Assembly: GCA_002270565.1 (NCBI GenBank)
Contig: NQMI01000001.1
Coordinates: 506,917-570,916, forward strand
Direction: 5' to 3'
DNA from: Stenocarpella maydis
Taxonomy: Eukaryota; Ascomycota; Sordariomycetes; Diaporthales; Diaporthaceae
DNA: 64,000 nt
Part shown: positions 6,107 to 40,675 of the stretch, piece after piece
How the letters are laid out: every line of letters begins with the position of its first letter
Numbering within the stretch: position 1 is the stretch's first letter
Made by a program: the position numbers and the translations under genes
Notes under the pieces: generated by a model
Told to the model about the DNA's origin: nothing
What the model saw: only the letters and a program-made list of their open reading frames with translations
The model's database searches: none

Positions 6107-6178
6107 GCGGATTTGGTGTAATGGTTATCATTCAACCCTTCCAAGGTTGAGACAGGGGTTCGATTCCCTTAATCCGCA
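6107..6178 (+). tRNA. tRNA-Gly (anticodon UCC)
   Basis: The 72-nt sequence folds as a complete cloverleaf. The 7-bp acceptor GCGGATT pairs with AATCCGC, with discriminator A. The D arm is standard, the anticodon stem CAACC/GGTTG encloses loop CTTCCAA (TCC at 34-36, reads GGA), and the T loop is TTCGATT. There is no intron. The anticodon arm and T arm closely follow yeast tRNA-Gly(UCC). Confidence 0.95.
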
Positions 6179-27640: not shown

Positions 27641-29379
27641 ATGTTTCTAAGGATTTCAGGGACGGTTTCCTGTGTGACGTGTGGTTGATGCTTGATGATG
27701 TTTATGAGTTATGCCCCCCGTCTTGATCTGCAGGCAACCTGGTCCCAGTACACGACGTGAAGTCTCACTGCCGGGGCAGCGCCCCCATGACGGTCACTTT
27801 CACGTTGTTGACCACGGACGGTCCTTTTCTCTCTTCTATACGCTCACTTCAGCCCTCTGCCGGGGACATTCCATTCGTTTCTGGGCGGATGCCTCACTGG
27901 GAGGAGGGCCCAGCACTTTGTACATTTAACGCCGGTGCGAGGAACATGGTCTATCAACATCAACAGGTTTAGATCCCAAGACAAAAATGTTACATGTCTT
28001 GCAGTACGTGTGAGATGTTAGAACAAAACCTTGCCCCTCATCTTCTTACGACATTCTCAGACCCTTTTCTCTGTCGTCCCTCCATATAACCCCACCCCCC
28101 CCCAATACTCTAGCCCTCAATGTGCTCATTGTCCATTCTTCCCTGCTATAACGTTTTGGGTCGCGTCCATTGAACCATGGACAAAATAGTGAATTGGTAC
28201 GCGACCCCCCGAGCACCCGAGCACCCGACACAACGGTGCGAGGCGATACCCTCCCCCGTCAGTCTCTGCCTCCACCCCCCCCTCCGAACTGATCGCCGCC
28301 CTGGTGCTGGACCCGCCTTGGCAGCCCGCGAGCCTCGTGGGCCCCGACGGCCTAGGCAGTGGGCGTGGGCTTGGGGTACGCGTCAGGGGTGGCGGTATGG
28401 CGGGCCTCAAGGCCAGCTACATTAGGGAGCAGCAGTCTGCCGGGCTTCCAGGTTGACGGGCATGAGGGGCGCGGATGGCATGCGCGTTCGCGACGGCCGC
28501 GACTGAGACGGTCTCTACGTCGAAGTGACACACAGGCACAAGTCAACTGTTAACTCGTTGATTTTCGTTTAGAGTTGCCTAGAGAAAAAGAAAGAAAATT
28601 ATTGCTAGGTGTATTAGCTGCAGGAGGGCTATTTGAAGATGGCAGGGGCTGTTGGGTGCCTTATCGATAAGGGCCACACAGTCTAGCAGCTAACAACCCC
28701 TATGAACTGATAGTGACGGCATAGAGGATGAGGGCTGTCTTTATTGATGTTGGTGTTATAGTAGATATTTAGAAAATACTTGTAAAGAGAGATAGCTGAG
28801 TTAAGCTTAGATATAATATAAAGCTTAAGATAATTACCTATTATACTTACTTATTAAAACTATAGCATAAGGCAGGATCTAACCTCTGCCTATGCCTAAA
28901 GGGCGTTGTGCTTAGGCGTTGAGTACTGGGCACTTGGTGGCCCGTGTGCTTATTGGTAGCACCCCTGGGCACCTACAGCTAGATCCTGAGGGGGCTGTGG
29001 CTTCGCTGTAACCCTCCCCTTAGCAATCAGAATCAACTGAAACAACCTTATTGAGATAAACAACCTTATTGAGACCCTACGTTTGATGATGTGATAACCC
29101 GTACGGGAAAGCCAAACCTATAAATTTTCATATATCAAACCCAACTCGCTAAAATCCTAAGAGACTAATTCTCAACCCTACTAGCACCTGGCCACTACGG
29201 CGCGGCGCGCGATAGCTTTTCCTCGTCAACCTCGCACCACCAGGCTCTCGCGTCCCAGCGAGCTCCGAACAAGCCGAGGAGGAAAACAACAAAACCAACG
29301 TGTCTCTGCTCTGCCAGCGCCAGACGAGCCCTGGGAGCTCGTCGCGCTCGACGACCCGGCGGGTGTCCTAGGAGGTATC
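27641..29379. other. Intergenic with an AT-rich repeat relic
   Basis: No supported gene. The right half (28556-29180) differs in composition and is listed separately. Confidence 0.45.
28556..29180. repeat. AT-rich relic, possible decayed transposable element
   Basis: About 625 bp rich in TA/TTA with no open frame, bounded sharply by GC-rich unique DNA. It contains a perfect direct duplication of AACAACCTTATTGAGA at 29041-29056 and 29059-29074. Composition resembles the RIP-affected elements at 57-64 kb, but no coding trace identifies the class. Confidence 0.4.
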
Positions 29380-30696
29380 CTAGTTGCCGATGGTGCCGCC
29401 GCCGACCCCGTGGTTGGGGATGTCGATGGGCCCGACGTCCTGACGGGCCTTGGGCGGCGTCTTGCTCTTGCGCAGGGCACGGCGGGCCCTCGTCGTGCTC
29501 CTCCTGCCGACGCTGCCGCCGCTGTTGCTGCTGCCGGGGTTGTCACCATTGCCGCCGCCGCCGCCTCCGATCACGATGCCGCCTGCGTTCCCGGCACTCC
29601 CGCCCGAGTTGCTGCCGCTGCCGCTAACGGCGCCGTTCTGGCGGGCCTCCACGCCGGGGCCCTGGGCGCGGGGTGGCGCCTCGCCGGTGTTCTGGCCCTG
29701 GCGCTGCTGGCCGTCCTGCCGGGCCTCGAGGTTGTCCCGCTTGCCCGGGTTGCCCGGGTTGGGGAGAACGACCGTCTGGATGATCACCTGGCGGGCATCC
29801 AGGGCAGCGGCGGTAGGAACCGGACCGGGGGCCTCCGTCACGGCGGCCTCGCGGCCCTGGATGGTATCGCCTGGCGGGGATTGGCCGACCTGCGTGGCGC
29901 GGGCGGCGACGGTGACGAAGACAGTCTCGTGAGGGGCGACGTCGGGCTCCTGGCGGGCCTCGTTGCCGCCACCTGGAGCGGCCAATATGGTAGCTTCCTG
30001 GCGGGCCTCGATGGTACCGCCTGGCTCCGTGGCGCGGGCGGCGACGGTGACGAAGACAGTCTCGCGAGGGGCGACGCCGGGCTCCTCTCGGGCCCAGTTG
30101 TTGTTGCCGCCACCTGGAGGGGCAACGGTGATAACTTCCAGCTGGCGGGCCTTGTTCCCGCCGCCTGGAGGGGCCACGGTAATAACTTCCAGCTGGCGGG
30201 CCTTGTTGGCACCTGAAGGGGCCAAGGTGATAGTTTCCTGGCGGGCGGAGACCGTCACGAAGACAGTCTGGCGAGTGGGGGCGACGGCGGCGTTGACAAG
30301 GCTAGTATCCTGCTGGCGGGCGGCGATGGGAGGGTTATTCTCCCGGCGGTCGACGTTGGGAGGGCCCCCGCCGCCCCCCCCGATAGGAGGCGCATTACCG
30401 ATGATGGGGTTATTCTGCCGGCGGCCGAAGTTGGGAGGGGGCCCCCCGAATCCAGGCGCAGTACCGATGATACCGCTGGGGGAACCCTCCTGGCGGGCGC
30501 CGATGGGAGAGGGAGGGGCCCCCCCGAAAGGAGGCGCATTACCGCTGCTACCGCCGCTGGGGGAACCGAGGTCCTGGCGGGCGGCGACGGGAGCGGGCCC
30601 GAAAGAGGGCGCATTACCGATGATGGGGTTATCTGACAGCTGCGCGGTCGCGACGGCCGCGACGGCGGAGAGGGCCACGGCGAGGGTTGCCTTCAT
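29380..30696 (-). CDS. Secreted Gly/Pro-rich repeat protein punctuated by Arg-Gln/Glu sites
   Basis: A single exon of 438 aa. Residues 1-18 form a clear signal peptide (M-K-A-T-L-A-V-A-L-S...A-T-A). The rest is segmented by about 20 sites of the form (A/E/K/R)-(A/x)-R-(Q/E/D/N), mostly ARQ, every 8-30 residues. Segments between sites fall into sets: N-P-I-I-G-N-A-P-x-x-G (twice, with looser relatives), L-E-V-I-T-V-A-P-P-G-G-G-N (twice, a 51-bp tandem duplication) and T-V-F-V-T-V-x-A-R (three times). True dibasic RR and KR sites also occur. Cysteine is absent, and there is no GPI signal. Propeptides of many fungal secreted proteins end in EARQ or similar, so the layout suggests a multi-peptide precursor; a low-complexity wall protein is the alternative. 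No known family is recognised. Confidence 0.75.
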   Translation of the reverse strand: MKATLAVALSAVAAVATAQLSDNPIIGNAPSFGPAPVAARQDLGSPSGGSSGNAPPFGGAPPSPIGARQEGSPSGIIGTAPGFGGPPPNFGRRQNNPIIGNAPPIGGGGGGPPNVDRRENNPPIAARQQDTSLVNAAVAPTRQTVFVTVSARQETITLAPSGANKARQLEVITVAPPGGGNKARQLEVITVAPPGGGNNNWAREEPGVAPRETVFVTVAARATEPGGTIEARQEATILAAPGGGNEARQEPDVAPHETVFVTVAARATQVGQSPPGDTIQGREAAVTEAPGPVPTAAALDARQVIIQTVVLPNPGNPGKRDNLEARQDGQQRQGQNTGEAPPRAQGPGVEARQNGAVSGSGSNSGGSAGNAGGIVIGGGGGGNGDNPGSSNSGGSVGRRSTTRARRALRKSKTPPKARQDVGPIDIPNHGVGGGTIGN

Positions 30697-38323: not shown

Positions 38324-40675
38324 TCAGTACCCGCCTATCTGGTGCGTCTTCGGTAGATACGGCGAGGTTCTCGGGGCCTCCAGGGCACTCGCACCCCCGT
38401 CGGCCTCCTTGAGCATCGACCTCTCTTGTCGCTCGGGCTCATCGCTGTCCTCTAGGCCCTCGTCTCGCAGTTCAGCCAACTGTGCCAGTCTGCGATTCTC
38501 AATTTGTTCCAAATTTCGCTTTTTGCGCGCTTCCGCCTTTTCTCGTTCCCTCTCGGGCCTTGTCTTGGTAAACTCAAAATAGGGCCTCGGTCTCAGGCGG
38601 TACTGTAGGCGGTCCTCGCGCTCTTTAATGCGCTCCTGGTGTTTCTTTTTTCTGTCCGAAGGAGCCACTGGTTTCTCCTGGCCAGAAGGCTTTGGGCGTG
38701 TCTCTTCCTCGACCGAAGGCGTAGGCGTACCGCGTGCAGTTTTAGTCGTGTCAGAGATGTCTTCCATAGCAGCAAAAGAGTCCTTCTGCTCAGGCAACGG
38801 GTCGCTCTTCCCAGGCAAATCGTCACCCTGCTCAGGCTCCGTAATGCCTGCGCCCCTGCTGAAGGGGCCAGCAAAGCGCGTCTCGATGATCCTCCGGATC
38901 TGGATGATGCTGTCGAGCAGCTTGACCGACTTGCTGCCCACGCGCACCGTCTTTAGTATCTCCTCCATCTCGCGCGACCGCCTCGCCAGCTCCCTGATGA
39001 GCTCGTCGGTCAGGGGTCGCCGCACGAGGTGCGGCATGCGCGCGCGCCACTCCTCCTCGACCTCCTTGGCGCCGCGGAGCTCGTTCCTCCGGCGCTGCAG
39101 CCTCGCCGATACCTCCCTCTGCCACGCGTAGGCCCTCAGGCGCGTGTCGCTCGGCCCGCCACAGATGGCCTCGTCGAGCTTGCGGAGGAGGACCTCCCTC
39201 CACAGCGGCCACGACAGCAGCCAGCCGTCGTGCTCGCCGGCGTCGATCCTCCCGTCTTTTCTCTCGATGCGTATCGATTCCTCCGCTATGGCTCGGGCCG
39301 TCTTTGCGCGCTTGCCGACCAGGATATGCGGGACGTCTACCTGTCGGTACGAGCTGTTCATCACGTCCTCAGAGAAGACCCCACTTGACCTGAAACCCGC
39401 CCCAGAGCTCTTGGTGGGCACGTTAGTGGCATACTGGTCGTCTGCTTCGACCATGCCGTAGTGGTCCACGGTGCCGTCCTTCATTCCAAGCTGTCTGGCA
39501 AACTCGTACGTCCACGCGGTGGATATATCGCGGTTGTCCATGCCCAACGGCGCCGTCCGAACCGAACCTGACTTTATGAGGCTGTAAGGTATGGCGCCTT
39601 GTCCAGCTCTATCAGTCCTGGAACCCTGGCTGAAGTATGTAAAGAGGTACTTGCCCGGGCCAAGAGGGCCCGTGGACATTTTCATGTGGGAGAGCTCTGT
39701 CGCTATACTAGTTGTGGTATTTTGCTGACGGATAGGAGTCCACGGATTTGAGGGGCTCGTCCATAAATCTAGCATCGGATTAGGTTGGCCGACATGGATC
39801 GACACGCCCCATTGGGTGATTCCGTCTTTGAAGGATGTATGGATGGTGGCTATACGTCGCACGTTTGTGCGTCGGTTGGAGGCGGAAAGAATATTTGACT
39901 GGACCGGTACATCTAGCCCTTCAAATTGCCCCCCGTCGACCTCTGGAGGTGGGATTCTGGACTCCACCCAGACGCCGTCGGACCCAGGGATGGAAAACCC
40001 GTGGAGTCCAAACTCCCGCCTCAGTAACTCAATAGTCGTATCTTCTAGAATCCTCGCAAACTCGTACTTTGTCTTCATCGCCGCGGAACCCCGTTGAATC
40101 TCGTCCTCGAGATCGATGATGGGCCAAATAGAGACCTGCCCAGGCCCCAGGAACATTGGTTCCGCGCAGGGCATGATTAGCACGCCAACCTCGGGCCATG
40201 TGTGATTTAGAGGGTTGTGTTTCCACGCGGCTTCGGCCATGTCCCGCTCCCAGAACGGCCTCCACGGACGCGATGACCACTGCGGGGGCTCGGGGAAGCG
40301 GAGGTTCATCCTGCTCTTGAGGGCCTTTGTGAGGTATTCGACCTGCCATGGCTCCTGCTTTTCCGTCTGGTGTTTTGGGAGGATATAAGTAGGGCGGCGG
40401 GTAAAGGACAGGACGGTGGGCGGTGGACCAGCCCGCCCGACCCACGAGGTAAAGGATTGGACGCCGGAGGTGAGGTAGCCCAGGCCATGCTCAACTTTCT
40501 CAGGCGGTGGCGGCTCTTGTTGAACAGCGCGCTGGCGGGTGATCTGGCCCTCGATGTGATCACGTATGGCACCGGGGAGGCTCCGTGGGGCATATAATGG
40601 TGGGAGGTCAGGGATATGGACGTGGCGAACGCAACGTCGCATGAAAAGGACCTCCGGGCTCAGTGCCGTGGCCAT
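38324..40675 (-). CDS. 783-aa protein with degenerate LipB (octanoyltransferase)-like domain and long charged extension
   Basis: A single exon. Residues ~85-330 resemble the LipB/BPL catalytic fold: S-F-T-R-R-P-T-Y-I-L-P-K-H-Q (cf. F-T-P-x-P-T-Y-T-L-G-R-R-Q), L-G-P-G-Q-V-S-I-W-P-I-I-D-L at 176-189 (cf. H-G-P-G-Q), G-V-W-V at 234, and R-R-I-A-T-I then W-G-V-S-I-H-V (cf. R-K-I-A-x-I and H-G-x-A-L-N-V). The RGG-TYH stretch before GPGQ is replaced, the catalytic Lys position reads Arg, and no P-C-G Cys is present. The remaining ~440 residues hold a basic helical region and an Arg/Glu-rich C-terminal coiled coil (670-755). The N-terminus is basic enough for a mitochondrial presequence. It is probably not an active octanoyltransferase; a mitochondrial structural or regulatory role is a guess. 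Confidence 0.6.
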   Translation of the reverse strand: MATALSPEVLFMRRCVRHVHIPDLPPLYAPRSLPGAIRDHIEGQITRQRAVQQEPPPPEKVEHGLGYLTSGVQSFTSWVGRAGPPPTVLSFTRRPTYILPKHQTEKQEPWQVEYLTKALKSRMNLRFPEPPQWSSRPWRPFWERDMAEAAWKHNPLNHTWPEVGVLIMPCAEPMFLGPGQVSIWPIIDLEDEIQRGSAAMKTKYEFARILEDTTIELLRREFGLHGFSIPGSDGVWVESRIPPPEVDGGQFEGLDVPVQSNILSASNRRTNVRRIATIHTSFKDGITQWGVSIHVGQPNPMLDLWTSPSNPWTPIRQQNTTTSIATELSHMKMSTGPLGPGKYLFTYFSQGSRTDRAGQGAIPYSLIKSGSVRTAPLGMDNRDISTAWTYEFARQLGMKDGTVDHYGMVEADDQYATNVPTKSSGAGFRSSGVFSEDVMNSSYRQVDVPHILVGKRAKTARAIAEESIRIERKDGRIDAGEHDGWLLSWPLWREVLLRKLDEAICGGPSDTRLRAYAWQREVSARLQRRRNELRGAKEVEEEWRARMPHLVRRPLTDELIRELARRSREMEEILKTVRVGSKSVKLLDSIIQIRRIIETRFAGPFSRGAGITEPEQGDDLPGKSDPLPEQKDSFAAMEDISDTTKTARGTPTPSVEEETRPKPSGQEKPVAPSDRKKKHQERIKEREDRLQYRLRPRPYFEFTKTRPEREREKAEARKKRNLEQIENRRLAQLAELRDEGLEDSDEPERQERSMLKEADGGASALEAPRTSPYLPKTHQIGGY

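What the first reader, a model, noticed from the sequence alone, without database searches (positions are those of the whole stretch)
29380..30696. Secreted repeat protein with ~20 Arg-Gln/Glu processing-like sites: candidate peptide precursor
Seen: signal peptide, no Cys, no membrane anchor, 438 aa split by recurring ARQ/EARQ/RRQ/KRD sites into related short segments, including a duplicated 17-residue unit and three T-V-F-V-T-V units. Known: many fungal secreted enzymes end their propeptide in EARQ-like sites, and kexin-processed repeat precursors feed fungal cyclic-peptide (RiPP) and pheromone pathways. Inference: this may release many short Gly/Pro-rich peptides, with Gln or Glu at the new N-terminus able to form pyroglutamate. 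No DUF3328-type modifying gene is seen nearby.
Basis: partly seen in the sequence, partly recalled or inferred. Interest (0 to 1): 0.75.

Follow-up and report, generated by a model that had tools for sequence, protein, structure and literature searches.

The report
Fungal multi-peptide precursor, single-arginine sites
A fungus, probably a Diaporthe relative, encodes a secreted disordered protein that looks built to be cut at about two dozen places by its processing protease into many short linear peptides, at single-arginine sites that two published surveys of such precursors did not count.

Summary
A 438-aa ORF (29380-30696, minus) starts with a signal-peptide-like stretch (by eye) and has no Cys or Tyr. 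Its mature part holds 12 ARQ triplets; shuffles give 0.23 on average, at most 4. The next-best of 761 frames in 300 kb of the same genome has 2 AR[QE]. That is the extended Kex2 motif in print. Secreted enzymes of this genome carry LEAR|Q, LEER|Q and LTKR|Q sites; it has a kexin P-domain and a glutaminyl-cyclase-like protein. Best reading: a KEP-like precursor of linear, partly pyroglutamate-capped peptides. It is not a dikaritin RiPP: no Tyr, and no UstYa/DUF3328 match found within about 0.8 Mb on the contig. It fails the dibasic-site rule of the two KEP surveys whose rules I read, hence a variant. Processing and function are untested; no relatives were found.

The parts
29380..30696 (-). precursor ORF, 438 aa, no GTRNGT intron donor
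30643..30696 (-). signal-peptide-like N-terminus, residues 1-18, ATA|Q
   Evidence: read; no predictor run
30343..30642 (-). residues 19-118: four Gly/Pro-rich units (IIGNAP-FGG-PP type) ending in AAR, GAR, GRR, DRR
29737..30342 (-). residues 119-320: mixed array of short fragments of 8-20 aa, two recurrent types (Q..ITVAPPGGGN and [QE]TVFVTV.AR), mostly single-Arg sites
30088..30195 (-). residues 168-203: tandem LEVITVAPPGGGN units; over 14 codons 4 synonymous and 0 non-synonymous differences
30241..30270 (-). QTVFVTVSAR unit, residues 143-152
30034..30063 (-). ETVFVTVAAR unit, residues 212-221
29899..29928 (-). ETVFVTVAAR unit, residues 257-266
29383..29736 (-). residues 321-438: short fragments, a 47-residue Gly/Ser/Asn-rich fragment, a basic stretch (398-418; window 29443-29505) and a last fragment QDVGPIDIPNHGVGGGTIGN

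Best explanation
It is the precursor of many secreted linear peptides. It enters the ER by its signal peptide, stays unfolded, and in the late Golgi the fungus's kexin cuts after Arg at about 20-24 sites of the form [V/I/L]-x-(mostly A)-R|(Q/E). This would release fragments of 6-28 residues (24 of 25 fragments; one has 47). A Kex1-type carboxypeptidase may trim the C-terminal Arg, and N-terminal Gln closes to pyroglutamate, spontaneously or by glutaminyl cyclase. Shown: the ORF, the site pattern, its kexin-like P4 preference, like sites in other secreted proteins of this genome, a kexin P-domain and a glutaminyl-cyclase-like protein. Inferred: cleavage itself, trimming, pyroglutamate. Function is a guess: the beta-prone TVFVTV and ITVAPPGG peptides acting at the hyphal surface or in the medium, in the manner of Ustilago Rep1 repellents, seems likeliest (about 0.22).
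For: 12 ARQ versus 0.23 in shuffles; only such frame among 761. P4 is L/I/V at 14 of 24 sites, background 15.2%, binomial p 1.5e-6, and 12 of 20 after dropping four sites in duplicated units; shifts of -12 to +12 give at most 9. Kex2 prefers LxxR with aliphatic P4 and tolerates other P2 (PMC8528282, part 1 of 3 of its text; PMC6258133, one passage). In a study of yeast and Candida Kex2, Asp/Glu and small residues were over-represented at P1' and P2' of cleaved sites (PMC2515848, passage); here 12 of 24 sites have Asp/Glu at P1' or P2' (counted by eye on the list). In residues 19-397 the three Lys all lie within two residues of a site Arg. Own-genome secreted enzymes: of 18 readable N-termini (32 loci looked at, picked by eye) 12 have an Arg site before the domain, 6 of them R|Q, 8 of them with L or I at P4. 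One kexin P-domain match. L068 matches solved glutaminyl-peptide cyclotransferases at about 1e-47. Many KEP peptides confirmed in Coprinopsis cinerea are pyroglutamated, and several products of its KEPs made in Pichia pastoris appear cut after single Arg (PMC9769878, passages). AlphaFold2 gives pLDDT 38.8, consistent with disorder (single sequence, so weak). The LEVITVAPPGGGN pair shows 4 synonymous and 0 other changes (about 0.007 if unconstrained).
Against: P2 is Ala at 15 of 24 sites, and Ala is not among the five best alternative P2 residues named in PMC8528282; that text also calls Asp at P3 unfavourable, and two sites (R118, R302) have it. Gln, the commonest P1' here, is not among the residues named as over-represented in PMC2515848. 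Four sites have Asn at P4. A 47-residue fragment has no inner site. Repeat units share descent, so sites are not fully independent and the binomial figure is too small. One duplicate has lost a site (Arg to His) and shows 1 synonymous against 4 amino-acid changes over 23 codons. Codon usage barely supports the frame. No transcript or peptide data; no orthologue found.
Confidence: 0.68

Rival explanations
1. An intact, disordered cell-wall or matrix protein. The Arg-Gln sites are left from an ancestral repeat unit and are not cut, or only partly.
For: Gly/Pro/Asn/Ser-rich composition, low-complexity C-terminal part, DNA repeats with 51- and 78-bp periods and a 135-bp spacing; no cleavage data; one duplicate lost its site.
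Against: Sites and P4 preference persist between segments of quite different interior; Lys occurs only near sites in residues 19-397; a disordered protein with such motifs passing the Golgi would be exposed to kexin (inference).
Confidence: 0.2
2. Precursor of a modified, cyclic RiPP of the dikaritin type (ustiloxin, phomopsin, epichloecyclin).
For: Signal-like start plus repeats; the genome holds at least 62 UstYa (PF11807) matches and the host is near Diaporthe; that phomopsins come from this genus is recalled.
Against: No Tyr or Cys; no UstYa match in the window, nearest on contig C1 about 0.8 Mb away (a search that scores only the best candidates). Umemura found such genes on average 3.09 genes from the KEP gene where present, in 22% of KEPs.
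Confidence: 0.04
3. Repellent-like precursor: the released beta-prone peptides (TVFVTV, ITVAPPGGG) assemble into fibrils on hyphae, as Rep1 peptides of Ustilago maydis do. This is the best explanation with a specific function.
For: Multi-peptide architecture; alternating TVFVTV pattern; the five AlphaFold2 strands fall in these segment types (very low confidence; it also draws a helix at 320-331). Rep1 described in PMC8528282.
Against: No sequence match to anything; Gly/Pro-rich fragments are poor fibril formers (general knowledge); no expression data.
Confidence: 0.22
4. Not a gene: an open frame in GC-rich repetitive DNA.
For: Long open frames also on the other strand; codon bias hardly discriminates; no relatives.
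Against: Signal-peptide-like start, 438 codons open, site statistics, synonymous-only change in one duplicate.
Confidence: 0.06

Closest known systems
KEX2-processed repeat proteins (KEPs; Le Marquer 2019 PMC6339444, Umemura 2020 PMC7329392)
   Same: signal peptide (by eye), related short segments between protease sites, several peptide types in one precursor, no conserved domain
   Different: 20 of 24 sites are single Arg with a non-basic P2 (one search list); dibasic sites alone give no set of three related fragments, so both published rules would miss it
Kex2-processed pro-domain proteins and ordinary propeptides ending LxxR (PMC8528282)
   Same: same extended motif, aliphatic-x-x-Arg, and same LEAR|Q type ends in this genome's enzymes
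   Different: one site before a folded domain there; two dozen sites and no predicted fold here
Ustilago maydis Rep1 repellents
   Same: secreted precursor of many peptides
   Different: not compared by sequence here; fibril formation unknown
Dikaritin RiPP precursors (ustiloxin, phomopsin, epichloecyclin)
   Same: signal peptide and repeated segments
   Different: no Tyr, no UstYa neighbour, mostly single-Arg sites

Membership tests
KEP | signal peptide, not membrane-bound | tested here: inconclusive
   clear by eye, no predictor available
KEP | three or more related segments | tested here: met
   four N-terminal units, four Q..APxGG units, three TVFVTV units; 31 similar pairs versus 11.4 shuffled
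KEP | related segments separated by dibasic sites (KR, RR, KK, RK) | tested here: not met
   dibasic digestion gives 7 fragments of 75, 25, 202, 79, 7, 4, 28 aa, with no set of three alike by eye; the surveys' own pipelines were not run; rules read
KEP | kexin present in the genome | tested here: met
   one P_proprotein match at 5e-15 (positions 1-56 of 86); catalytic domain not checked
KEP | cleavage by Kex2 | not testable with these tools
   only motif evidence
dikaritin RiPP | UstYa/DUF3328 gene close by | tested here: not met
   62 matches in genome (a lower bound), none in window, two on C1 near 1.357 Mb
dikaritin RiPP | Tyr in core peptides | tested here: not met
   no Tyr in the protein
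ascomycete alpha-pheromone precursor | Cys-containing core and Ste13 XA/XP runs after sites | tested here: not met
   no Cys; only isolated Ala or Pro near N-termini, by eye; that the core holds Cys is taken from the example and recall
Rep1-type repellent | peptides form amyloid on hyphae | not testable with these tools
   only beta-prone sequence

The most novel reading that the evidence does not exclude
Filamentous ascomycetes have a class of multi-peptide precursors cut by kexin at single-Arg [V/I/L]xxR|Q sites. Most cuts leave an N-terminal Gln that becomes pyroglutamate, so that one gene yields some twenty different, mostly capped linear peptides. Because the two large surveys read here count only dibasic sites, the class may have gone uncounted.
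Probability: 0.4. Interest if true: 0.65.

Novelty: new variant of a known kind. Interest (0 to 1): 0.47.

Why it matters
If single-Arg sites of the LxxR|Q kind are used in repeat precursors, published counts of fungal peptide precursors are too low, and a simple change of the search rule would uncover more candidate secreted peptides (signals, surface peptides, effectors). The prediction is sharp: named peptides with pyroglutamate ends should be in the culture filtrate.

Tried and rejected
Homologues: two searches of the 5.8-billion protein set (about 8,000 candidates were scored in each, the cap, and low-complexity words may crowd it) and Pfam and PDB gave nothing. A neighbour gene, Atg22, as control found 33 proteins including Diaporthe ones at 73-89%, so the set holds Diaporthe proteins; the precursor is thus unannotated, fast-evolving or missing there, or was missed. 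Paralogues: none in the own genome even at E up to 10 (one candidate in the first look). RiPP and pheromone readings rejected (see membership test). Structure: AlphaFold2 uninformative beyond disorder, so no fold search was made. Codon-usage test for the frame: weak. Glutaminyl cyclase: 5 of the 12 M28 loci fetched (23 matches in the genome) were compared with PDB. L068 is cyclase-like (its best hit is a chain named 'Peptide hydrolase', 3e-62, the next are glutaminyl-peptide cyclotransferases at about 1e-47); three are like aminopeptidases or a keratinase; one gave no hit. Papers: Diaporthe plus kexin gave two irrelevant papers (listing); a search asking for three of LEARQ, EARQ, propeptide and fungal gave none; KEP plus monobasic gave PMC9769878 and a paper using the word otherwise; LxxR plus Kex2 plus repeat listed six, of which PMC6258133 and PMC8528282 were looked into. 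The first own-genome propeptide tables had the strand of minus matches wrong and were replaced.

Full report
The ORF. The window belongs to a 53.5-Mb, 312-contig genome. A neighbouring Atg22 gene is 89% identical to one of Diaporthe sp. PMI_573, 83% to D. helianthi and 73% to D. citri, so the host is Diaporthe or close to it. It begins with a hydrophobic signal-like stretch ending ATA|Q (by eye), has no Cys or Tyr, no GTRNGT donor and no Pfam or PDB relative. Codon usage is a weak witness: 0.050 for this frame against up to 0.030 antisense and 0.048 for a 124-aa ORF in another minus frame.

Are the sites more than chance? In the mature part ARQ occurs 12 times against a mean of 0.23 and a maximum of 4 in 20,000 composition shuffles. 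Among 761 frames of at least 100 aa in 299,725 bases of the same genome (window plus the loci fetched by then other than L001, overlaps between loci included), this frame has 13 AR[QE]; three have 2, 68 have 1 and 689 have none. In 24 Arg sites, P1' is Q in 15 and Q/E/D in 20; P2 is Ala in 15 and basic in 4.

The residue four before the cut (P4) is Leu, Ile or Val at 14 of 24 sites, against 15.2% in the mature protein (binomial p 1.5e-6); after removing four sites in evident duplicates it is 12 of 20. Sliding the frame by -12 to +12 residues gives at most 9. Kex2 is described as preferring Leu or another aliphatic at P4 and tolerating P2 other than Lys/Arg, and a screen of random pentapeptides showed a strong preference for -LXXR- (PMC8528282, part 1 of 3 of the text; PMC6258133, one passage). 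The binomial figure assumes independence, which repeats violate in part. Against it: Ala at P2 is not among the top five alternatives listed there, Asp at P3 (two sites, R118 and R302) is called unfavourable, four sites have Asn at P4, and Gln at P1' is not among the residues that PMC2515848 found over-represented (Asp, Glu, Ala, Val, Leu at P1'/P2'; passage), though 12 of 24 sites have Asp or Glu at P1' or P2'.

The same sites elsewhere in the genome. I looked at the upstream frames of 32 loci: 15 cutinase, 10 GH11 and 1 AA9 and 6 of 10 pectate-lyase loci. By eye an N-terminus with a signal-like start is readable in 18 (12, 6); for those continuity of the frame with the domain was not checked. 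Twelve have an Arg site between signal and domain: LEAR|Q (L035), LEER|Q (L039), PTR|Q (L044), LTKR|Q (L048), LARR|Q (L057), GRR|Q (L079), LTKR|G (L049), LVAR|D (L046), LVGR|S (L054), VSR|A (L040), VSR|D (L071), IEKR|A (L073). Eight of these 12 have L or I at P4. Six (L036, L038, L050, L077, L078, L080) show none. The other 14 loci were dropped because no start could be read.

Enzymes. One P_proprotein (kexin P-domain) match. Of 23 M28 matches, five were compared with PDB; L068 matches a chain named 'Peptide hydrolase' best (3e-62), then glutaminyl-peptide cyclotransferases at about 1e-47. Many KEP peptides confirmed in Coprinopsis cinerea were pyroglutamated, and several products of its KEPs expressed in Pichia pastoris appear to end after single Arg (PMC9769878, passages). 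These make the pathway possible, not shown.

Inner structure. Three recurrent segment types: Gly/Pro-rich IIGNAP-FGG-PP units (residues 19-118), Q..ITVAPPGGGN units, and [QE]TVFVTV.AR units. Two LEVITVAPPGGGN copies differ by 4 synonymous and 0 non-synonymous changes over 14 codons (about 0.007 under no constraint by a simple count), a hint that the peptide itself is kept. Another duplicate (23 codons compared) has 1 synonymous and 4 amino-acid changes: two E to Q (at P1' and P3'), one G to D, and one Arg to His that removes a site, so not all sites are strictly kept. AlphaFold2 on the single sequence gives mean pLDDT 38.8, consistent with disorder but weak evidence.

Membership. Both KEP surveys whose rules I read demand dibasic sites (KR/RR/KK, PMC6339444; KR/KK/RK/RR with three or more repeats of at least 8 aa, PMC7329392; abstract and passages seen of the first, passages of the second). 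Dibasic digestion here gives 7 fragments without three alike by eye, so by those rules it is not a KEP; it works like one. Le Marquer and colleagues note, for species in which they found none, that they cannot exclude unusual Kex2 sites. It is not a dikaritin: no Tyr; no UstYa match in the window; nearest on the contig near 1.357 Mb, about 0.8 Mb off.

Verdict. A likely multi-peptide precursor with mostly monobasic kexin sites (0.68). Its function is unknown in fact; surface-active or signalling linear peptides are guesses. No orthologue could be examined, which is the main gap.

Noticed in passing
G000:C240:316211-330964: Twelve UstYa (PF11807) matches (exon pieces, so fewer genes) within 15 kb, with further groups on C20, C67, C150 and C219: the genome seems rich in dikaritin-type RiPP clusters.
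   Followed up: no
L068 (G000:C268:457044-457733): Relative of solved glutaminyl-peptide cyclotransferases, a candidate pyroglutamate-forming enzyme.
   Followed up: partly
window 28500-28999: AT-richer patch (GC 0.436) just downstream of the precursor gene, against 0.526 for the window; might be a mutated repeat.
   Followed up: no
window 38324-40675 (-): 783-aa open frame without a Pfam match.
   Followed up: no
window 6107-6178 (+): tRNA-Gly(TCC).
   Followed up: no
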